From Caldilineaceae bacterium SB0662_bin_25 (GTDB lineage: Bacteria > Chloroflexota > Anaerolineae > Caldilineales > Caldilineaceae): a DNA stretch of 49,212 nucleotides. The notes under the pieces were generated by a model. The model had not been told where the DNA came from. It saw only the letters and a program-made list of their open reading frames with translations, and ran no database searches. The number at the start of each line of letters is the position of its first letter. The first letter of the stretch is position 1. The DNA is taken from contig VXOE01000011.1 of NCBI GenBank assembly GCA_009840225.1, forward strand, positions 1 through 49,212, written 5' to 3'. Shown one piece after another: positions 7,102 through 16,629 of this stretch. The position numbers were made by a program, and so were the translations under genes.

Positions 7102-9042
7102 TCACAACGGCCAGAAAAGCGGAATCAAGACCGTTGCCAGCGCCCACATGATGACTGTCAGCGGAATGCCGATGCGCAAATAGTCGCCAAATGTGTACCC
7201 ACCAGCGCCTCTCACGATGGCGTTAGTCTGGTACCCCATCGGTGTCATAAAGCTGGCCGAAGCGCCAAAGGCTATCGTCATCAACAGCGGCTGTGGATTC
7301 ACCTGCAGTGTGGCGGCCATTGATAGCGCGATTGGGGTGAGGAGGACGGCAACGGCGTTGTTGCTGATCAGTTGGGTCAGGAGGCTGGTGAAGAGATAGA
7401 AGAGGGAGAGCATGACGACCGGGCTGACCTGGCCGGAGAAGGCAATCAGTTGATCCACGAGCAGCTGGGCAAGCCCGGTTTTCTGCATGGCAATCCCCAT
7501 GGGGATGGTGCCGGCAAGCAGCAAGAGAGTAGCCCCGTCAAGAGACGACATAGCTTCATCGGCGCGCAGACAACGTGTAGCAACCATCAGCGCCGCCCCG
7601 CCCAAAGCCAGCATGACTATCGGGATTCCCGTCAGGCTGGCCAAGAGAATCACCGCGCCCATAATAATGAGAGCCGGTCTATTTTTGGCGCGCCTGACGA
7701 TCGCTGACTCGACGCCTTCGACCAGAAGCAGCTTGAATATCTCGCTCACTGTGTGCAGGTCGGAGCGTGTACCCTGCAGGAGCAGTACGTCCCCGCTATG
7801 GAGGCGTGCGTGTCGAGGGCCGACGCGGCGTTGCCCGCCCCTTCGCTGAAGCCCCAGCACATGGACATGGTGACTATCTTCAAATTCAAGCTGTGCGAGC
7901 TGGCGGCCTATTGCCACTGAGTCCGGCAAAATTACGGCCTCGACGATACGGAGCGCGGGCGAAGCGCCAGACGAACTCTCTGATGGCGGCGGGGCAAACT
8001 GTCCCGGCTCCGAAGAGTATCCCGAGTAGGTGTCGATAAAGCGGGCAATCACCGGTGGCGCGCCGCAGATGACCAGAACGTCGCCTTCCTGGATTCGCAG
8101 TGACTCTGCGTCGTCCGGCTCGAAGCGTCTGACCAAATCCAAGCGTGATGGTTGGGGATGCCGTGCGCGGTGCGGCCTGCCGTCGCGCAGAAGTTCGAGC
8201 AGTTCGATGCGGTCTTGCGCCGCTTCGCCTTTATTGTGCAGGGCACCACGCAAGTGAGTCAAGCGCCGGTGGTGGCGCTCCGATCTGCGCCGCGAGAAAC
8301 GGACCCCGGCGGCCTCGCTGAACAGTTCACCGACGTTCTGGCCGAGCAAGGGGCTCGTCTTTTCGACTATCAGCTCGGCGACGAAAGGGGTGCTCTGGTG
8401 GCGGCCTTCTCCAAGGCTGCCGGCAGGGGATCTGTCAGGCAGCAGTTTCTGGCTTGTCAAGACAACGAAGACTCCGCCTGCAACTGTGAAGATCAGGCCG
8501 AGCGGGGTGAAGGTCAACAGGTTGAAACCGGGCCCACCTGCTGCACGGTAGAGGTCGTCTACCAGGATATTGGTGCTTGTTCCCAGCAAAGTAATGGTAC
8601 CGCCCAACACGGCGAAGTAGCTCAAGGGAATGAGCAGCTTGGAGGGTTGAATTCGGAAGCGCTGGCTAAGTGAGAGCACCACGGGGGCCATCATGACAAC
8701 CACGGGCGTGTTGTTCATGATGGCGCTGGCCAGAGGGATGACACCGCCCAATAGGATCAGTAGCCGGCGTGGACTACCACCAGAAAATCGCGCCAGACCA
8801 ATCGTCACGATCTCCAGCGCGCCCGTGCGAAGCAACCCGCCGCTAATCACAAACATTGCGCCCACAGTAAGAGTGGCGGTGCTGGCGAATCCGGACAAGG
8901 CCTCGCCGGGGTCCAGTATTCCGGTCAGAGCGAGGGAGGTGATGGCAAGAGCTGAAGTCGTCTCAGTCGCCAGCCAGTCCGTCAGATAGAGGTAGGTCGC
9001 CACCACGAGAATGATGACGAGAATCATCATGTCGGTGGTCAT
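7102..9042 (-). CDS. SLC13-family (DASS) anion transporter with central RCK-C/TrkA-C domains
   Basis: A 646-residue polytopic inner-membrane protein. The N-terminal transport half (about 1-205) carries the NNTPVVVM motif after a re-entrant segment. The C-terminal half (about 430-646) repeats it as ISNNAVAVLLTP and ends with more membrane helices. Between them lie two soluble regulatory TrkA-C-like modules, each ending in a 'GDVL' strand (EGDVLVICG and SGDVLLLQG). This is the architecture of bacterial SLC13-type permeases for sulfate, dicarboxylates or similar anions, usually about 590-620 residues. Residues about 235-300 between the RCK modules are Arg/His-rich and less family-like. No good ribosome site precedes the ATG. 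Transported ion unknown. Confidence 0.85.
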   Translation of the reverse strand: MTTDMMILVIILVVATYLYLTDWLATETTSALAITSLALTGILDPGEALSGFASTATLTVGAMFVISGGLLRTGALEIVTIGLARFSGGSPRRLLILLGGVIPLASAIMNNTPVVVMMAPVVLSLSQRFRIQPSKLLIPLSYFAVLGGTITLLGTSTNILVDDLYRAAGGPGFNLLTFTPLGLIFTVAGGVFVVLTSQKLLPDRSPAGSLGEGRHQSTPFVAELIVEKTSPLLGQNVGELFSEAAGVRFSRRRSERHHRRLTHLRGALHNKGEAAQDRIELLELLRDGRPHRARHPQPSRLDLVRRFEPDDAESLRIQEGDVLVICGAPPVIARFIDTYSGYSSEPGQFAPPPSESSSGASPALRIVEAVILPDSVAIGRQLAQLEFEDSHHVHVLGLQRRGGQRRVGPRHARLHSGDVLLLQGTRSDLHTVSEIFKLLLVEGVESAIVRRAKNRPALIIMGAVILLASLTGIPIVMLALGGAALMVATRCLRADEAMSSLDGATLLLLAGTIPMGIAMQKTGLAQLLVDQLIAFSGQVSPVVMLSLFYLFTSLLTQLISNNAVAVLLTPIALSMAATLQVNPQPLLMTIAFGASASFMTPMGYQTNAIVRGAGGYTFGDYLRIGIPLTVIMWALATVLIPLFWPL

Positions 9043-9396
9043 ATGGAGCTAATTCGTGGGGACAAAAGGTAGATTCCTTTGGGCACGGGACCAAGCTGTG
9101 ACGGCTCTCAGCAGGCTGCCAAATTCGCATAGTTGCCGTGCATCAATGCGAAGGGGCAGCTGCAAGTTACAGGCGGGGTCGGTTATCAGGATACTGTCTT
9201 GCCTATACTGAGTCAAGCCTGCGAGCGCCTAGGGTGGAGGTGTAGAATTGCCTGCATCAGCTGATCAGAATACAGGAAGGCGGGTTGACGGTGAAGGTCC
9301 GCCGTGATATTGTTCGTGTAATCAGCCAAGGGTTTTGCCTCCCCGCCAAAGGCCTGAATCTGTCTCACCAGCGTTGGAAATATGGAGGTCCTGTAG
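9043..9396. other. Divergent intergenic region
   Basis: 354 bases between the divergent transporter and sialidase-like genes. No coding frame, strong hairpin or clear promoter pair was recognised. The only functional element I can point to is the GGAGG ribosome site at 9384-9388 for the next gene. Confidence 0.4.
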
Positions 9397-10470
9397 ATGA
9401 GCGATCCCACAGCAGAGCATGACTCAGCTGAACGCTGGATCGATCCGGTATGCAAGCCACTGTCGATTGACGCGAGCCGACCCTTTGTCAGATTGCGGAA
9501 CGGTGGACTCATGGCTGTGGCTGGAAACGCAACCATCGTCAGCACCGATGACGGGACGACCTGGCAAGCCCCGCGTCCGATTTACCGCGGCGACGTGGCC
9601 GGTCTGCCTTCACCAGGTCCCGGCGTACCGCGGAACGCTGGACAGTTGTTGATTACCCGAGGCGGCACGCTGGTTTTCGTCTGGATGGACGAACGAGTCC
9701 TGAATTGGGACGATGCCAGCGGCGAGCCTGGCTCGGATGCCCGCGGTGACCTCTGGGCAATCCGCAGTCTGGATGGCGGGGCGACTTGGGTTGACCGCCA
9801 ACGTCTGTTTCGCGGGGTGTGCGGTCATCCCCCCATCAACATGATTGAAACTGTCAACGGAAGAATTGTGGTAACCAACCAGTTCTACATGCGCCGCCCG
9901 GGAAGAAATGCAATTAGGGTCTACTCCTCGGGCGATGAAGGGAAGAGTTGGCAAGGCAGCAACATTATTGACTTAGGTGGACATGGTCACCATGACGGCG
10001 CGTTCGAGCCGACCTTCATCCAGAGGCGAGACGGTACCCTTTGGATGCTCATTCGCACCAACTGGGATCGATTCTGGGAAGCGATATCCTTTGATGAAGG
10101 CCTGTCGTGGCGTACGATCCGGCCAAGTTCGATCGAAGCAAGTACGTCGCCGGGCTATCTGACTCGACTGGAGAGTGGGCGACTTCTCCTAGCCTGGAAC
10201 CGCCTCTATCCTGAAGGTGCCGAAAGCTATCCCCGGCGCAGCGGCCAACTGTCGGAAGACGAAGCAAGCTGGCACCGGGAGGAGTTGTCCGTTTCCGTAT
10301 CCGAGGATGAAGGGGTCAACTGGTCGGCGCCACGGGTAGTCGCCCGAGAGAAAGATGCCTGGATTTCCTACCCGTATGTTTTTGAGTGGGCTCCGGGCCA
10401 ACTATGGATACTGACTGGCCAAGGTGATCTTCGATTGCGTGTAGCCGAAAGGGATCTGTTTGACAGATAG
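9397..10470 (+). CDS. BNR/Asp-box repeat protein, sialidase-like (GH33-type fold)
   Basis: A 357-residue predicted six-bladed beta-propeller. Five Asp-box motifs (SxDxGxxW) are visible: STDDGTTW (49-56), SLDGGATW, SGDEGKSW, SFDEGLSW and SEDEGVNW. The spacing of about 50-70 residues is regular, as expected at the turn of each blade. VRLRNGGLMA near the start and RRDGTLWMLIRTN are typical of exo-sialidase-like proteins. I did not confirm the complete Arg triad, Tyr/Glu pair and catalytic Asp of true sialidases, so another glycosidase or a non-catalytic lectin-like role is possible. No signal peptide is evident. GGAGG lies 8 bases before the ATG. The adjacent genes suggest a link to carbohydrate use. 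Confidence 0.8.
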   Translation: MSDPTAEHDSAERWIDPVCKPLSIDASRPFVRLRNGGLMAVAGNATIVSTDDGTTWQAPRPIYRGDVAGLPSPGPGVPRNAGQLLITRGGTLVFVWMDERVLNWDDASGEPGSDARGDLWAIRSLDGGATWVDRQRLFRGVCGHPPINMIETVNGRIVVTNQFYMRRPGRNAIRVYSSGDEGKSWQGSNIIDLGGHGHHDGAFEPTFIQRRDGTLWMLIRTNWDRFWEAISFDEGLSWRTIRPSSIEASTSPGYLTRLESGRLLLAWNRLYPEGAESYPRRSGQLSEDEASWHREELSVSVSEDEGVNWSAPRVVAREKDAWISYPYVFEWAPGQLWILTGQGDLRLRVAERDLFDR

Positions 10471-10575
10471 AGCTGTCACTGAGGTGATTCATAAAGTTGC
10501 AGTCAGTGGAAGTGTCGCAGGGCGCGACCGGACCTGCGAGGTGGCGAAGGAGGTCTGCAGACCAAGAAGAAGAGA

Positions 10576-10646
10576 GCGGGCGAACGGACTCGAACCGTCG
10601 ACATTCAGCTTGGGAAGCTGACGTTCTACCACTGAACTACGCCCGC
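10576..10646 (-). tRNA. tRNA-Gly (anticodon CCC)
   Basis: On the minus strand the 71 bases fold into a full cloverleaf: 7-bp acceptor stem (GCGGGCG with CGCCCGC), a D-arm with TAGTTCAGTGGTAGAA, a 5-bp anticodon stem TCAGC/GCTGA around loop TTCCCAA, and a T-arm with GGTTCGAGTCC. The anticodon is CCC, reading GGG. The discriminator base is T, normal for bacterial tRNA-Gly. CCA is not encoded and would be added enzymatically. Confidence 0.96.
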
Positions 10647-10706
10647 AAAACGATAGAATTCTGAGCTTCGCTCGATTGTCAGTAAGGTTGGCGAAACATC
10701 CTTACT

Positions 10707-10735
10707 ATAATACGGGTGCGTACGCGCACTGTCAA
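10707..10735 (-). promoter_or_regulatory. Consensus sigma-70 promoter of tRNA-Gly
   Basis: Minus strand: TTGACA (10730-10735), a 17-base spacer and TATTAT (10707-10712). This is a full match at -35 and 5/6 at -10. It is about 60 bases upstream of the mature tRNA 5' end, so a short leader would be removed by RNase P. Confidence 0.75.
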
Positions 10736-10928
10736 ATCAGCAAAAATGTCGCTTGCGCTATGCATTTGTTTCGTGTAAAACTATGATGTGGAGTCCTACG
10801 CTTTCAGATCAAGAAAGCCCCCTTTCAAACTTCAATAGTCGAGCAGTGCCCCTTCGTGGAAATCGTTCCGGGTATGGCTTACAATTGACAGAAACGACGA
10901 GCGTTTCGAAATAGGAGGAGACGTTAGA

Positions 10929-12005
10929 ATGATTCAGTTTGACTTTGGCCGCCTGGAACAAGTGGAACTGCGCACAGTATGGGTGAGTGAGGACAGCGAC
11001 TTCGCCACTTGGCTGGCGCGCGGCGACAGTCTTGCCCTTCTAGGGGAAGCGCTAAACTTGGACCTTGAGTTGGAAAACATGGAGGGCTGGGTCTCACCTT
11101 ACCCACGAGGCGTGGTCTGCCGTTCTCGAGGCAGTGGCGGCTACGTAGTTATCGAGAACCAACTGGAACATACCGACCAAAGCCACTTAGGGCAGCTTCT
11201 CACCTACGCCGCAGAGTTGAAGGCGGTTACTATGGTGTGGGTGGCTGCTCAGTTTACTCAGGAGGATCGAAACACTCTCGACTGGTTAAACGAGATAACA
11301 AACGATGGCATTCGGTTTTTCGGCCTGGAGGTAGAGTTGTGGCGAATCGGCGAGTCGCCACTTGCGCCGAAGTTCTATCTGGTCAGCAAGCCAGCCGGCT
11401 GGGAAGAAGGCACGGCTTCTTCAGGACGTAGCAAACCCGTCAGCACTGCTAACCCTACTCCGACTCCTGCGCCAACACCTGCCCCGGCCGAAACAGACGA
11501 GACATCCTTAGAGGATCAGCTGCAGCAAGTTGAAAATGAACTGCAACTCGAATACCAACTCGTGGAAAACGAACTTCAAATGGAGTACTGGCAAGCATTA
11601 CGGAAGCATCTTGAGGACAGTGGGAGTTTCATCCGTCCGGGCACGCCTCGTTCACAGAATTGGATGAATTTTGATGTTGGACACTGGCGCCTGCGCATGA
11701 CCGCTTTCAACAATATGCGAGAAGGCGGCATAGGCGTTCAGTTAGTGATTCGCGAAGGGGATGCTGAAGTTTCCTACAATACACTCTATCAACAGCGCGG
11801 GGAGATTGGGGCCGAGATTGGCGACGCATTGGAGTGGCGCGAACTACCAGAACACAAGCAGGGGCAGGTGATGTTGCGCAGGTACAACGCCGACCCGACC
11901 AACAGGTCACAGTGGCCGGACCAGCATTCCTGGTTCAGGCAAAAGTTGGAGGCATTTGACCGAGCATTTCGTCCGCGAATCTCTACGTTCGGCGCCGGCA
12001 ACTAG
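10929..12005 (+). CDS. DUF4268 protein with N-terminal PD-(D/E)XK-like domain, probably inactive
   Basis: A 358-residue soluble protein of a family in which a restriction-nuclease-like domain is joined to DUF4268. The N-terminal part (1-158) shows the family pattern: WLARGDSLALLGEAL, VVIENQLEHTDQSHLGQLLTYAA (IENQ at 75-78), LDWLNEIT and FFGLEVELWRI. Where relatives carry a catalytic Asp in a 'PFxADIL' strand, this protein reads SPYPRGVVC (56-64), with Gly61 at the Asp position. A Pro/Thr linker (about 170-190) and a coiled coil with a tandem VENELQ(L/M)EY duplication (201-220) lead into the DUF4268 domain (about 222-350). AGGAGG precedes the ATG by 10 bases. Relatives may act in DNA processing or defence; the role here is unknown. 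Confidence 0.82.
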   Translation: MIQFDFGRLEQVELRTVWVSEDSDFATWLARGDSLALLGEALNLDLELENMEGWVSPYPRGVVCRSRGSGGYVVIENQLEHTDQSHLGQLLTYAAELKAVTMVWVAAQFTQEDRNTLDWLNEITNDGIRFFGLEVELWRIGESPLAPKFYLVSKPAGWEEGTASSGRSKPVSTANPTPTPAPTPAPAETDETSLEDQLQQVENELQLEYQLVENELQMEYWQALRKHLEDSGSFIRPGTPRSQNWMNFDVGHWRLRMTAFNNMREGGIGVQLVIREGDAEVSYNTLYQQRGEIGAEIGDALEWRELPEHKQGQVMLRRYNADPTNRSQWPDQHSWFRQKLEAFDRAFRPRISTFGAGN

Positions 12006-12062
12006 AGGGGAAGAATCCAGGCACGAATCCCGCTTAAGCCTGTAAGAGCACCATTCTTTCGC

Positions 12063-12112
12063 CGCCCATTCCGGTTACGCCAGTACTGTTCCGGGTGGGC
12101 GATTCCTTTTGT
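12063..12112 (+). terminator. Candidate terminator between convergent genes
   Basis: A stem with a small internal loop pairs 12063-12074 with 12091-12101 (6 + 4 bp, 16-base loop). On the plus strand ATTCCTTTT follows. It lies 57 bases after the DUF4268 gene and just before the end of the convergent aminopeptidase gene. The T-tract is interrupted, so the call is tentative. Confidence 0.4.
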
Positions 12113-12132
12113 GCCAGGACAGGCAATCTGTC

Positions 12133-13188
12133 TCAAAGCTTTTTTGGTGCTTTACCCAGTATTTCTGCAGCGAACTCTCCATCCGACATGATACGTCTTC
12201 CGTCCACGTCGATCGTGCATCGAGTTGGGATGACGTCTACATGGTGGTCGGACTTCCAGTCGGCGCCTGTCTGCTTACCGTAAGGGTCGCCGAAAGCAAC
12301 GTGCACGCCTGGGAACTTCTCGTCCTGTAGCAGATTTCCAACCAGTCCGGTCAGAGCGATGTTGGTGCCTATCGCAAATTCGCCAACCCGATCGGCGTTC
12401 TCAGCGCCGTAGATATAGGACTGAACATCCTTTTCCAGAGATTTGTCTTCACTTATCACGGACCTCACGCGTCCCTCTACAACCTCAAACCTGACCGGAG
12501 ATTCGAGGATTCCGTATCGTTCGCTGAAGTAGTCGCCCAGTTCGTCTACCACCAGCACGCCGTTTGCGTTTCCAGGGGAGGTAAAAGTCTCCCCTTCCGG
12601 CAGGTTGCCCCATTTGCCCGGCTCGTGGTAGAGCCCGTGGCAGGGTATCCAATTGAAATCGGGATTCAGGGCGGCGGTAAAGTCGGTTCCTTTCGGATTC
12701 GTGACGCGAATCTCATTTGCCTGACTCGCTAGCTCGTGGACTCGCATCGTAACGGCGTAGATCTGCTGGTAATCGACTCGCATCCCCTGCATCATCAGGA
12801 GAGGCGTGATGTTGATCATATGGCCGTGGCGGGCGCCGGCAGGATTTGCTTGCATCACAGCAGGCAAATAGGCCATTCGGAATTTCAGTTCGCCCGGGCG
12901 GCTGCTGGCGGTATAGAAGCTGACGTGTGGTTGAAAGCTCTCTAATGCGCTCTGGAGCCTACCCGGAATCTCGGTGATGGGGCGGGTGCCAAGCGATTCC
13001 AGCGTGTGCATTTCTACGGCTTCGGCGAGGGGCCTTGAGGCATCGGCCAGTGCCCTGCTGATCAGCGACGAGCCCTCGTCGCCTAGGATGAACACGCGTT
13101 CGCCGGGCCGTACGCCCATGCAGATTCGCACTGCGACATCAGCGCCAGCCCGCATGTCGTCCAGAGTGAAACTTCCTGTATCAGACAT
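12133..13188 (-). CDS. M29-family aminopeptidase (leucyl aminopeptidase-like)
   Basis: A cytoplasmic dinuclear-metal aminopeptidase of the thermophilic M29 family (PepS/AmpT/ampS type), removing N-terminal residues from peptides. Expected ligand regions occur in order in the C-terminal half: the Glu in LPEGETFTSP, the Glu in VGEFAIGTN, the His in HVAFGDPYG, and the His/Asp of SDHHVDVI. I place the start at the ATG at 13188, giving 351 residues, because GGAGG (13200-13204) lies 11 bases upstream. An in-frame TTG at 13221 would add 11 residues but has no better ribosome site. It is convergent with the DUF4268 gene and lies 86 bases after the Trk gene on the same strand. Confidence 0.87.
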   Translation of the reverse strand: MSDTGSFTLDDMRAGADVAVRICMGVRPGERVFILGDEGSSLISRALADASRPLAEAVEMHTLESLGTRPITEIPGRLQSALESFQPHVSFYTASSRPGELKFRMAYLPAVMQANPAGARHGHMINITPLLMMQGMRVDYQQIYAVTMRVHELASQANEIRVTNPKGTDFTAALNPDFNWIPCHGLYHEPGKWGNLPEGETFTSPGNANGVLVVDELGDYFSERYGILESPVRFEVVEGRVRSVISEDKSLEKDVQSYIYGAENADRVGEFAIGTNIALTGLVGNLLQDEKFPGVHVAFGDPYGKQTGADWKSDHHVDVIPTRCTIDVDGRRIMSDGEFAAEILGKAPKKL

Positions 13189-13274
13189 AGCCAGAAGGAC
13201 CTCCGGAGTACTGTGGTGCAATTTGAGACGGCAATGGGTCGAGAAGGAAGGTCGCCATAACGGGGACTCGACGC

Positions 13275-14801
13275 TTACCCCAAAATGACCGATTCCTCAG
13301 GATATTGGAGAAGCGAAGGGCGCTCACGCTGTGCCAAAGCGATGACGATGGTGAGTGGTCCCAAGCGACCCCAAAACATAGTAAACGCGATCAGCGCCTG
13401 TCCCCAAGCGTTGAGCTTGTGCGTGTGGCCCAAAGAGTAACCTGCATTTGCAAAGGCGCTCACCACCTCGAAGCCAAGTGCAAATATGTCTCCTTGAGTA
13501 AAAAGAGATAAGATGATCGTGACGAGGGCGACCAAAAGCGTGCTGACTGTCATGATCGCGACGGCCTTATTCAGCGTTTCTCTTGGTACTGAGCGGCCAA
13601 ACGCAACGGCCTGATTGTCTCCCCCTTTGGCTGTCGCCAGGGCCGAAATCAGCAGAACGCCAAAGGTGCTGGTTGTCACGCCGCCGGCCATGCTGGCCGG
13701 TGCGCCGCCGACGAACATCCAGAACAGGAGCATGAGCTGTGTACTCTGGCTGAGCTCCTGGAGGGAAAGAATGGTCAGGCCAGCCGTACGAGCGGATATG
13801 ACTGTGAAAAGAGTGATTGCGATCTGTTCACCCACAGAATGGGCAGCCAGAGTAACTTCGTATAGTTGTCGATCGAGGAGCATGACGGCCAGGCCCACGA
13901 CGAGGAGCACAACAGTCAAGCCCAAAGTAATGCGCGTGTTGAGGGCCAGCATGCGATTCCTGAAATAGCTGACCACATCGTACAAAACGGCCACGCCGAC
14001 GCCCCCCAGTACAATCAAGGCCGACATCACCGCGAGCGAGTAGTAGTCGGCACTGAATCCGAACACTGGAGCGTGTTCGCTACCTGCAAAGAGGTCGAAA
14101 CCGGCATTGCAGTAGCTGCTGACGGCGTGGAAGAGCGCCAGCCACAGGGCTTCTCCGTCCGGAAGTTGAGTCCGCCAGCGAAGCCAGAGCAAGAGCGTTC
14201 CAACCGCCTCGATTGAGACGGTTACGATCAGGACATAAAGTGCGAGATTGGCGACGCTGCCGAGACGTCCCCAGTTACCTTTCAGAGTGAACTGTTTTTC
14301 GGCTCCGAGCGACTGCTGTATCAGGAACCGTTCATTCAGGGTTACCCGTCTTCCAACCAGGCGAAAGAGGAGTACGCTAAATGCGATAAAGCCTACGCCT
14401 CCCACCTGAAGGAGGACCAAGATAATGAACTGGCCAAAACGGCTGAAGTCCGTAGCGGTCGTGAGCACTCCCAGGCCGGTAACCGTCACGGCGCTGGTAG
14501 AGGTGAATGCGGCCTCCATCCATGAAATTGACACATCCGAGGTTGCGGCAGCCGGCAACTTGAGGAGGAGCGTTCCCAAGATTATGATGCCGGCAAATCC
14601 AAGAATCAGCAGGCGGGGTGCCTGTGCGCGTGACAAACGAAGGTCTGTGGTCTCCCTTGTACGGACGGCATCGTCTGCCAAACCCGGTCGGTCGGAACCT
14701 TCCCCCTCGCTCAAACGAAGATTTAGCTGGGCCGCATGGGATGCCTCTTCTGCTGAAGCAGGTGGATTCTGGCCTATGGGTTCCTGGGAACGACTTTTCA
14801 T
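13275..14801 (-). CDS. trkH: TrkH/KtrB-type potassium (or sodium/potassium) transporter subunit
   Basis: A polytopic membrane protein of the Trk/Ktr/HKT family that moves K+ into the cell. Four pore-loop repeats are recognisable: TVTGLGVLT, SSYCNAGFD, SARTAGLTI and SAFANAGYS. Each has the selectivity-filter Gly, which fits a K+-selective pore. About 60-70 hydrophilic, acidic and Ser-rich residues precede the first membrane helix. The ATG at 14801 gives 508 residues. An in-frame TTG at 14876 would add 25, and neither start has a clear ribosome site. The partner nucleotide-binding regulator (TrkA/KtrA) is not in the window. I looked for a c-di-AMP riboswitch upstream and did not see one. Confidence 0.87.
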   Translation of the reverse strand: MKSRSQEPIGQNPPASAEEASHAAQLNLRLSEGEGSDRPGLADDAVRTRETTDLRLSRAQAPRLLILGFAGIIILGTLLLKLPAAATSDVSISWMEAAFTSTSAVTVTGLGVLTTATDFSRFGQFIILVLLQVGGVGFIAFSVLLFRLVGRRVTLNERFLIQQSLGAEKQFTLKGNWGRLGSVANLALYVLIVTVSIEAVGTLLLWLRWRTQLPDGEALWLALFHAVSSYCNAGFDLFAGSEHAPVFGFSADYYSLAVMSALIVLGGVGVAVLYDVVSYFRNRMLALNTRITLGLTVVLLVVGLAVMLLDRQLYEVTLAAHSVGEQIAITLFTVISARTAGLTILSLQELSQSTQLMLLFWMFVGGAPASMAGGVTTSTFGVLLISALATAKGGDNQAVAFGRSVPRETLNKAVAIMTVSTLLVALVTIILSLFTQGDIFALGFEVVSAFANAGYSLGHTHKLNAWGQALIAFTMFWGRLGPLTIVIALAQRERPSLLQYPEESVILG

Positions 14802-15261
14802 GACCAGTAGTGGGTACCTGTTACCAGGGCGAATCGGGCTGCGTCCCGAGGGAAAATCGCTCAATCGACTACTCAAATTGTAATGTACACGCGAGCAAGT
14901 TTCCGTCCAAAATGAGGGAGGCAGAAAGCGCTTCCGCGATCACGCGGCGCACCGCGGCGTCGGATCACAAACTACCAGGGCGCAAACAGCACACAGGCTT
15001 CTCTTCAGGGAGAGTCCTGATTCCTGTAGACTGTCGACTTCCAGCAAATCGACCCAAAGGAGGGGCCCCCTCAACACTCCTGAAATTTTACTTGGTATAA
15101 AATTTATTATACGGAATAAAAATCTGAAGATGGTCACCCTCGTCGTTTGCCCCTAAATCTTGCCATATTGTTTATGTTCATGTACTCTCACTCGGAATGC
15201 GCGCTTCAGGTTCTGGACGCGTTCTTGTCCCGGAATGCTCTGTAAGGAGACCTTTCCTTTC
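14802..15261. other. Divergent intergenic region with AT-rich palindrome
   Basis: 460 bases between trkH and the histidine phosphatase gene. No coding frame is supported. The notable element is an AT-rich near-palindrome, GTATAA-6 bases-TTATAC at 15095-15112, in otherwise GC-rich DNA. It carries TATAAT on the minus strand and TATAAA on the plus strand. These may be -10 elements or an operator, but I could not pair either with a convincing -35 box. Confidence 0.4.
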
Positions 15262-15987
15262 ATGATACTTTATCTGATTCGTCACGGTCAGTCATCCAAC
15301 AATCTGCTTGCCGAGCAACTGAAGGATCGTGCAGGTCCATACCCCTTCGAAACTTACATGAAGCAGCGGGTCGCGGAACCGCCGCTGACGAAGCTAGGGG
15401 AGGAACAGGCGGAACGGCTAGGGTCTTACGTCAATGGCATGGCGATTTCCCGCCTCTACTGCAGTCCAATGTTGCGCACTATGCAGACGATCCGGCCACT
15501 TGCAGAGTCCCTTGGCTGCAATCCAGCAGTCTGGATCGATCTGCACGAGCATGGCGGCGTGTTCCACCGGCCAGGTGTTGACGTTGAAGCAGTCGGCCAT
15601 CCTGGCCTCAGCCGTTCAGAAATGAGTGAAATGTTCCCCAACTATCGGTCTGACGTTATTGGGGAAAGCGGCTGGTGGCAAGGAGGCGAAGAAGATCTGG
15701 CCTCTTGTCACGCTCGTGCCGTGAGGGTGGGAGAAGAGCTGCAGCGCATGGCAAGAGAATCAGGGGAGGATGAAAGCATTGCCGCCGTCAGTCACGGCAC
15801 GTTTATGGATAGTCTGCTGAAGGCGCTCCTGGGACGGCTGCCGGGAATTGATTTTTACTTCAACCACCACAATACCGGTGTCACGCGGGTCGACTTTTCT
15901 CCTACCCGAATGCCAGGGAGATTGACGGTAACTGTTCGCTATACGAATAGGGTTGAGCATCTGCCCAATGAACATATGACCTATTGA
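15262..15987 (+). CDS. Histidine phosphatase superfamily protein (phosphoglycerate mutase-like)
   Basis: A 241-residue cytoplasmic phosphatase or mutase of the branch-1 histidine phosphatase fold. The phosphohistidine motif is LIRHGQS at residues 5-11. CSPMLRTMQTIRPL supplies the second Arg region, HEHGGVF the acid/base region and VSHGTFMDSL the second catalytic His. The start at 15262 is chosen because AAGGAG lies 12 bases upstream and the RHG motif then falls at residue 7, as is usual. Longer frames to 15160 add a Cys/Arg-rich stretch with no family similarity. It is followed after 12 bases by the ThrH-like gene, so the two phosphatases are probably co-expressed. The substrate cannot be assigned. 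Confidence 0.87.
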   Translation: MILYLIRHGQSSNNLLAEQLKDRAGPYPFETYMKQRVAEPPLTKLGEEQAERLGSYVNGMAISRLYCSPMLRTMQTIRPLAESLGCNPAVWIDLHEHGGVFHRPGVDVEAVGHPGLSRSEMSEMFPNYRSDVIGESGWWQGGEEDLASCHARAVRVGEELQRMARESGEDESIAAVSHGTFMDSLLKALLGRLPGIDFYFNHHNTGVTRVDFSPTRMPGRLTVTVRYTNRVEHLPNEHMTY

Positions 15988-15999
15988 GAGGAGTCATAA

Positions 16000-16629
16000 T
16001 TGGCTGATTCACGCCCCCGCTTGCTTGCGAGCGATTTGGAAGGTGTACTCGTTCCTGAGATCTGGATTGCGTTTGCCGAGAAGACCGGGATCGAGCAACT
16101 GCGCCTTACTACTCGAGACGTTTCTGATTACGATCAATTGATGCAAATGAGGTTGAATATCCTGAAGGAACGGAATCTTCGCCTTCAGGACATTCAGGAA
16201 GTAATCGCGACCATCTCACCTCTGCCCGGTGCGGGGCAGTTCATAGACTGGATTCGCGAGCGCGCTCAGGTAGTCATCCTGTCCGACACTTTCTACGAGT
16301 TTGCCAAGCCATTGATGGCTCAGCTCGGCTATCCGACTATCTTCTGTCATTCTCTTGAAGTTGATGCAGTCGGGTCCATTACCGGTTATCGACTGCGTCT
16401 CGACGAGTCCAAGCGAAGAGCGATTTCAGCATTTCGCGACCTCAAGTTTCAGACGTTAGCGTTGGGCGATTCTTACAATGACATAGCGATGCTGAAACGG
16501 GCAGACGTGGGGGTCCTTTTCGACCCGCCGGACAACGTAGTTGAGGACCATCCCAACCTACCGGTAGTTCGAAACTATTGTGAAGCCCAGGCGATCATTG
16601 GGGACTGGCTGTTGGATAGAGGAGAGTAG
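16000..16629 (+). CDS. thrH: ThrH-type HAD phosphatase (phosphoserine phosphatase/homoserine phosphotransferase)
   Basis: A 209-residue HAD-superfamily enzyme matching Pseudomonas ThrH nearly end to end. In that protein the activity is phosphoserine dephosphorylation and phosphate transfer to homoserine. Visible motifs: the nucleophile Asp in [20 protein letters not shown] (about residues 10-29), the Ser in [11 protein letters not shown], a Lys near DESKR, and motif IV in [13 protein letters not shown]. The start is a TTG, supported by AGGAG (15989-15993) six bases upstream and by the family N-terminus. It follows the histidine phosphatase by 12 bases. It likely contributes to serine or threonine metabolism. 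Confidence 0.92.

What the first reader, a model, noticed from the sequence alone, without database searches (positions are those of the whole stretch)
10929..12005. DUF4268 nuclease-like protein missing its catalytic Asp
Aligned by eye to remembered family members without gaps, the strand that normally reads 'ADIL' is RGVV, with Gly61 (codon at 11109-11111) in place of the PD-type Asp, while IENQ is kept. This suggests a binding-only or regulatory derivative.
Basis: partly seen in the sequence, partly recalled or inferred. Interest (0 to 1): 0.5.

Follow-up and report, generated by a model that had tools for sequence, protein, structure and literature searches.

The report
Genus-wide inactivated defence-type nuclease protein
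A protein that looks like a single-gene anti-phage nuclease has lost the key metal-binding residue of its cutting site, yet all examined species of one bacterial genus keep it and change it very little, so it has probably been turned from a DNA cutter into a binding or regulatory protein.

Summary
Confirmed and extended. The 358-aa protein at 10929-12005 has an N-terminal NucS/EndoMS-like PD-(D/E)XK fold (ExQ variant) and a C-terminal DUF4268 domain; PADLOC files the family as phage-defence candidate PDC-S11. Of 148 non-orthologous family ORFs, 137 have Asp where this protein has Gly61; the rest are 6 Ser (one other genus), 1 Gly (a wholly degenerate copy) and 4 unreadable. All 17 orthologues, one per held genome of this Caldilineaceae genus, have Gly; four have also lost the second acid (Glu76). 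No acid lies in residues 53-75 of the window protein. The gene is largely syntenic and under strong purifying selection (median dN/dS 0.042 in the N-domain, 0.017 in the C-domain; four neighbours 0.055-0.098). In Asp-retaining relatives the C-domain evolves faster than the N-domain; here this is reversed. Another genus (6 of 6 genomes) is fixed for a different Asp-less member; whether the losses are independent is not settled. Best reading: a catalytically dead, vertically inherited derivative of a candidate defence nuclease that now works by binding a fixed partner. Loss of the site is shown; inactivity, partner and function are inferred. A conserved RNA stem around the start codon hints at controlled translation.

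The parts
10929..12005 (+). Asp-less PDC-S11/DUF4268 protein, 358 aa (P0001)
10929..11408 (+). N-terminal domain, residues 1-160: PD-(D/E)XK-like fold, closest to EndoMS/NucS; keeps E21, E52, E76, Q78, Q89, Y93, lacks the Asp
11109..11111 (+). Gly61 codon (GGC) in place of the family Asp
11154..11162 (+). E76-N77-Q78 (ENQ; aligned with ExK of NucS_C proteins); Glu lost in 4 of 17 orthologues
11409..11567 (+). Variable P/T-rich linker (residues 161-213), running into a helix with an 11-residue repeat (residues 199-220) that is kept across the orthologues
11568..11978 (+). C-terminal DUF4268 domain (residues 214-350), fold like YbjN and type III secretion chaperones
10753..10781 (+). Conserved promoter-like element TTGCGC-17-TAAAAC, possible promoter of this gene
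   Evidence: alignment of 17 upstream regions; hexamers recognised by eye, not listed by the scan
10865..10880 (+). Conserved leader box, 5' arm of a stem
10947..10959 (+). 3' arm of the stem, inside the first codons, synonymously conserved

Best explanation
A catalytically inactive, vertically inherited derivative of the PDC-S11/DUF4268 candidate defence nuclease. Shown here: a NucS-like PD-(D/E)XK fold without the aligned metal-binding Asp (and without the second acid in four of 17 orthologues), kept by all held genomes of the genus under strong purifying selection, with the normally faster C-terminal domain almost frozen. Inferred: it no longer cuts nucleic acid; the C-terminal chaperone-like domain, probably with the repeat helix, binds one fixed partner of the host cell; the N-terminal domain is kept as a nucleic-acid- or protein-binding platform; the protein acts as a regulator or scaffold, and its translation may be controlled through a conserved stem around the start codon.
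For: Asp in 137 of 148 non-orthologous ORFs; Gly in 17 of 17 orthologues, Glu76 lost in 4 of 17, Tyr93 to Phe in 3 of 17. Profile alignment of the relatives' N-domain puts this Asp on the Asp of the DLL strand, ENQ on ELK and Q-xxx-Y on Q-xxx-Y of NucS_C-domain proteins (prob 96.5, E 7.9e-10). EndoMS/NucS lead the structural matches of the N-domain (Z 10.3 for P0001, 10.8 for a relative). Present in 16 of 16 other genomes of the genus. M29-like and TrkH genes lie downstream in 14 of 14 loci whose contigs reach them; the symporter lies upstream in 15 of 16. In two genera with Asp-retaining members the best such gene is found in 9 of 13 and 4 of 6 genomes at E<=1e-30. Median dN/dS N 0.042, C 0.017 against 0.055-0.098 for four neighbours. 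C-domain identity is at least the N-domain's in 115 of 120 pairs; in Asp-retaining groups N exceeds C in 46 of 47 pairs.
Against: No activity or binding was measured. The window protein keeps E21, E52, E76, Q78, Q89 and Y93, so residual or altered metal binding cannot be excluded. I know of no assay of any family member, and the whole family has Gln instead of Lys in ExK. Model coordinates could not be measured, so the distance of other acids (for example D113, new in this clade) to the pocket is unknown. Residues 54-58 are of low confidence in the model. In another genome an Asp-less copy sits directly beside an Asp-retaining one (L205), which fits a partner role there. The upstream synteny fails in L041.
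Confidence: 0.7

Rival explanations
1. Still an active nuclease with a rearranged site, using E52, E76 or another acid in place of the Asp.
For: E21, E52 and E76 are retained in the window protein; PD-(D/E)XK enzymes can relocate acids (recalled).
Against: No acid in residues 53-75; E76 itself is replaced by Ala or Gln in four orthologues; E21 and E52 are conserved across the family (108 of 108 each), so they are not newly recruited.
Confidence: 0.1
2. A non-cutting partner or inhibitor of Asp-retaining PDC-S11 paralogues, pairing through the C-domain.
For: Such paralogues exist in several of these genomes, for example C96 and C291 of this genome. In genome G170 a degenerate copy lies directly beside an Asp-retaining copy on the same strand (L205: 1460-2803 and 482-1456).
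Against: 6 of 16 other genus genomes show no other family member at E<=0.001, and one more (G007) only a 125-residue ORF; the genomes are mostly drafts. Paralogues are divergent (32-45% in the N-domain) and vary from genome to genome; none lies beside this gene.
Confidence: 0.13
3. Still a defence protein: a non-cutting sensor that triggers another effector.
For: The family is a PADLOC phage-defence candidate; in two of three plasmid records looked at, relatives lie near hsdM or type I RM genes (not).
Against: No defence gene recognised beside it (ORFs, 8000-16000, read by eye) and no constant operon partner: the nearest downstream genes are on the other strand and the BNR gene upstream is absent from 5 of 16 sister loci. 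Genus-wide retention with a frozen C-domain is unlike the Asp-retaining members.
Confidence: 0.1
4. A decaying pseudogene or annotation artefact.
For: Loss of catalytic residues.
Against: dN/dS of 0.02-0.04 and no stop inside any of the 17 orthologues, one of which is cut by a contig end.
Confidence: 0.01

Closest known systems
PDC-S11 (PADLOC phage-defence candidate, DUF4268 proteins)
   Same: Homology along both domains, HMM E 5.7e-94; two-domain layout; 148/352 identical to an Asp-retaining viral-contig member
   Different: Asp61 lost; present in all held genomes of a genus; frozen C-domain; longer P/T linker and repeat helix
NucS/EndoMS mismatch endonuclease (2vld, 5gkj, 5gke)
   Same: N-domain fold (Z 9.6-10.3) and the aligned positions of E, D, ExK, Q-xxx-Y
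   Different: Gln for Lys in the PDC-S11 family, Gly for Asp here; no N-terminal DNA-binding domain ahead of the core; a different C-terminal domain
Shedu nuclease SduA (DUF4263)
   Same: Defence-linked PD-(D/E)XK core combined with other domains (8ti9, Z 7.9)
   Different: DUF4263 not listed by Pfam for P0001; different accessory domain
YbjN/AmyR and type III secretion chaperones (6vu7, 2bsj, 3kxy)
   Same: Fold of the C-terminal DUF4268 domain, Z about 8.5
   Different: Identity around 10%; matches of this size can be a shared arrangement only; no secretion system implied

Membership tests
PDC-S11 / DUF4268 proteins | Match to family HMMs | tested here: met
   PF14088 81.8 bits over a 27 cut-off; PDLC04911 E 5.7e-94
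PDC-S11 / DUF4268 proteins | Anti-phage function | not testable with these tools
   Candidate status only; in PMC10855318 (passages read) 90% of 10 P. aeruginosa strains encoding PDC-S11 were phage-resistant, a correlation
Active PD-(D/E)XK nuclease | PD-(D/E)XK core fold | tested here: met
   EndoMS Z 10.3, rmsd 2.5 over 100 residues; profile match of the relatives' N-domain to NucS_C proteins, prob 96.5
Active PD-(D/E)XK nuclease | Metal-binding Asp on the second strand | tested here: not met
   Gly61, 17 of 17 orthologues
Active PD-(D/E)XK nuclease | (D/E)-x-K motif | tested here: not met
   E76-N-Q78: Glu present in the window protein, lost in 4 of 17 orthologues; Gln for Lys in nearly the whole family. 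ExQ is known from BglII (recalled), so this alone does not show inactivity
NucS/EndoMS | N-terminal DNA-binding domain before the nuclease core | tested here: not met
   The matched core starts at residue ~20 and Pfam lists no such domain
Type III secretion chaperone / YbjN | Fold of the C-domain | tested here: inconclusive
   Z about 8.5, a level at which unrelated arrangements can appear; similar matches with the Asp-retaining relative
Shedu SduA | DUF4263 nuclease domain | tested here: inconclusive
   Structural match Z 7.9; no DUF4263 in the Pfam scan

The most novel reading that the evidence does not exclude
A mobile immune nuclease was captured, at least once and perhaps independently in two Chloroflexota genera, stripped of its catalytic site, and turned into a core cellular regulator. 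Its former fast-evolving target-recognition domain became fixed on one host ligand, and its translation is controlled through a conserved stem that encloses the ribosome-binding site, possibly by the protein itself.
Probability: 0.3. Interest if true: 0.72.

Novelty: new variant of a known kind. Interest (0 to 1): 0.5.

Why it matters
Domestication of defence nucleases into non-cutting host proteins has few clear bacterial examples (recalled). This one can be followed through 17 genomes, with Asp-retaining relatives as controls. The reversal of constraint, with the C-domain slower than the N-domain, points to DUF4268 as the recognition module and offers a route to the function of a domain of unknown function that also occurs in GmrSD-type restriction proteins.

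Tried and rejected
Sequence search of the PDB gave no meaningful relative. NCBIfam gave nothing; PHROGs gave only families of unknown function. Foldseek alone gave no match under E 0.001 for P0001, though 2vld at 3.2e-4 for the Asp-retaining relative. A family absent from the structure lists is not excluded.

Independent loss in the two genera: the tree is open at the backbone (129 of 133 rows), and on 50 of 133 rows with five pocket columns blanked the AU test does not reject one common clade (p 0.476). So 'twice' is only suggested by the different residue patterns.

This added a third Asp-less case (L205) beside an Asp-retaining copy, and two odd copies: L211, which keeps the Asp but has Asn for Glu52 and Cys for Tyr93, and L212, divergent. 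For that reason I raised the partner rival from 0.10 to 0.13 and lowered the best explanation from 0.72 to 0.70. The tree, the profile and one search do not include these rows.

Leader box as a regulon signal: an identical 16-mer elsewhere in the genome (C275) and a looser one (C249) overlap protein-coding ORFs, so I set them aside as chance or unrelated. The leader stem has no double-sided covariation, the shuffle control equals the observation because most columns are invariant, and the region is no more stable than shuffles. Rfam lists only a tRNA there.

Literature: DUF4268 in 2 papers and PDC-S11 in 2 papers of the held library. Passages read in PMC4619093, PMC10855318, PMC12813430, PMC5290159 and PMC12137116. 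Searches on pseudonuclease or inactive-fold terms showed nothing on this family among the rows listed (12 of 133 and 10 of 56 papers). I claim no wider absence from print.

Full report
What was checked. The ORF is there, 358 aa, and codon 11109-11111 is GGC. Pfam places DUF4268 at residues 216-350; PADLOC matches the protein to PDC-S11, a phage-defence candidate. The window is contig C349 of a 5.6-Mb draft genome; the named records that hold the orthologue are Caldilineaceae MAGs, 16 of 16.

Is the Asp really a family feature? I collected relatives from this genome and its relatives, from 400 genomes of the phylum (57 with a match; 30 loci fetched there, the remaining N-domain places), from viral contigs (63 loci), from three of 61 matching plasmid records and one of four phage records. 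The first alignment held 133 distinct ORFs out of 158 (ORFs under 100 aa not considered, identical ones dropped). Outside the 17 orthologues the column is Asp in 108 of 116, Ser in 6 and a gap in 2 fragments. The added 32 ORFs give Asp in 29, Gly in 1 and two unreadable (there ORFs from 60 aa were considered, and the new rows were added to the old alignment). Together: Asp 137 of 148. The viral loci were found by patterns that include IENQ or HLG(Q/K), so the Glu count is biased there; the Asp is in neither pattern. The genome loci were found with an HMM of the family, which favours typical members. In the first set, outside the two Asp-less clades, Glu21, Glu52 and Asp61 are each 108 of 108 and Glu76 is 109 of 109; in the added set there are single exceptions at each of these positions (L205, L211, L212). 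A gapless BLASTP stretch with a relative sets Gly61 on its Asp60.

Is that Asp catalytic? I know of no assay of any family member. The N-domain profile of alignment A3 (53 rows, five of them from the P0001 clade) aligns with NucS_C-domain proteins from the same phylum (probability 96.5, E 7.9e-10). Ten of the twelve loci fetched with PF01939 were used, and single templates scored from 1.4 to 83.7. The alignment puts the Asp on the Asp of the DLL strand, ENQ on ELK, and Q-xxx-Y on Q-xxx-Y. Predicted models of P0001 (pLDDT 84.8) and of an Asp-retaining relative (92.1) have EndoMS/NucS at the head of the N-domain matches: Z 10.3, 9.8 and 9.6 for P0001, 10.8, 10.8 and 9.5 for the relative. So the missing residue corresponds to the metal-binding Asp of RecB-like nucleases (that role recalled; PMC5290159, passages read, names a RecB-like nuclease domain in NucS). 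The family carries Gln in place of the Lys; BglII-type enzymes show that ExQ can be active (recalled).

Are sister proteins intact? Within the orthologue clade, Gly is found in 17 of 17; Glu76 is E in 13, A in 2 and Q in 2; Tyr93 is Y in 14 and F in 3. Gly is written with four different codons. The Ala and Gln changes are separate events, each shared by a pair of close species. Paralogues in the same genus keep the Asp and the Glu wherever the columns are readable. No acid lies in residues 53-75 of the window protein; one orthologue has a Glu at 66.

How is it kept? Of 150 relatives searched, all 16 of the same genus have the orthologue, one cut by a contig end. Of the 46 genomes of the family, 17 are of this genus; 3 of the other 29 have a match, none of it the orthologue. 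In 16 sister loci the M29-like peptidase and TrkH lie downstream in 14 of 14 whose contigs reach them (L041 and L048 end earlier). The symporter lies upstream in 15 of 16; L041 has neither symporter nor BNR gene in 6 kb upstream, and the BNR gene is missing in five (L035, L041, L043, L044, L045). These gene names are my reading of the translations, not a family search. Median dN/dS over usable pairs is 0.042 for residues 1-160 (87 of 120 pairs), 0.017 for 214-350 (66 of 120) and 0.156 for the linker (56 of 120); many dS values are saturated. Neighbours measured the same way give 0.098, 0.065, 0.055 and 0.064 (11 to 15 sequences each).

Reversal of constraint. In five Asp-retaining groups of three or more members, plus one pair, N-domain identity exceeds C-domain identity in 46 of 47 pairs. 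In the P0001 clade this is so in only 5 of 120 pairs; the C-domain averages 94.9% and the N-domain 89.1%. In the second Asp-less clade both domains are frozen (98.8 and 97.5%, five sequences). I chose the groups from the loci at hand.

Further Asp-less members. Six of six genomes of another genus carry one such protein with Asp to Ser, Glu21 to Ala, Glu52 to Asn and Tyr93 to Thr, keeping Glu76. In two genera with Asp-retaining members, 9 of 13 and 4 of 6 genomes match at E<=1e-30 (several drafts). Residue patterns differ from P0001's, which suggests separate losses, but the tree does not reject a single clade (p 0.476). A third case, L205 in genome G170, has lost Glu21, Asp61, Glu76 and Gln78 and sits directly beside an Asp-retaining copy on the same strand. 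That arrangement points to a partner role there and is not seen at the P0001 locus.

The C-terminal domain. Its fold resembles YbjN, DR_1245 and type III secretion chaperones (Z about 8.5; similar in the relative). Matches of this size can be a shared arrangement only. If the resemblance holds, DUF4268 is a protein- or peptide-binding domain (inference). DUF4268 also occurs in GmrSD-type restriction proteins (PMC4619093, passage read).

Expression signals. Upstream of the gene, the 17 orthologues share a promoter-like element (10753-10781, by eye), a box at 10865-10880 and, in most, an AGGAGG-type ribosome site. The box pairs with codons 7-11 (10947-10959), enclosing the ribosome site and the start. 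RNAalifold finds this stem unprompted. 220 of 221 cells pair, 13 of them with pair-preserving one-sided changes, and sliding the partner drops pairing to 24-53%. The first codons are the least variable synonymous stretch of the gene (5 of 10 codons identical against 7 of 212, 16 sequences). Against it: no double-sided change, an uninformative shuffle control, and no unusual stability (z 0.65). Low synonymous variation at gene starts is common (recalled).

Mechanism. Most likely the protein no longer cuts. It holds its NucS-like fold as a platform, and through the frozen C-domain and the repeat helix it binds one host partner, acting as a regulator or scaffold. Steps shown: residue loss, fold, selection, retention, constraint reversal. 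Steps inferred: inactivity, partner, regulation. A partner or inhibitor of Asp-retaining paralogues is less likely as the general role, since 6 of 16 sister genomes show no other family member (mostly drafts), but the L205 tandem keeps it open. A pseudogene is excluded by selection.

Verdict. It is a new, well-bounded variant of a known family rather than a new kind of system.

Noticed in passing
window 10865-10880 with 10947-10959: Conserved 13-pair stem between a leader box and the first codons, enclosing ribosome site and start codon; possible translational control.
   Followed up: partly
window 10574-10646 (-): tRNA-Gly (ccc) in the upstream intergenic region, with a near-consensus promoter on the minus strand at 10735-10707.
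   Followed up: no
L086-L090, L092-L097: A second genus (6 of 6 genomes) fixed for a family member lacking four of the conserved pocket residues (Glu21, Glu52, Asp61, Tyr93).
   Followed up: partly
L205:1460-2803 (-) and L205:482-1456 (-): Tandem pair in genome G170: a family member with a wholly degenerate motif directly beside an Asp-retaining one.
   Followed up: partly
L054 (G014:C144:91051-91998): Paralogue interrupted by an in-frame TAG in one sister genome.
   Followed up: no
G000:C136:1798-2007: This genome also encodes a protein with a NucS_C-type domain (E 4.0e-8), separate from the PDC-S11 members.
   Followed up: no
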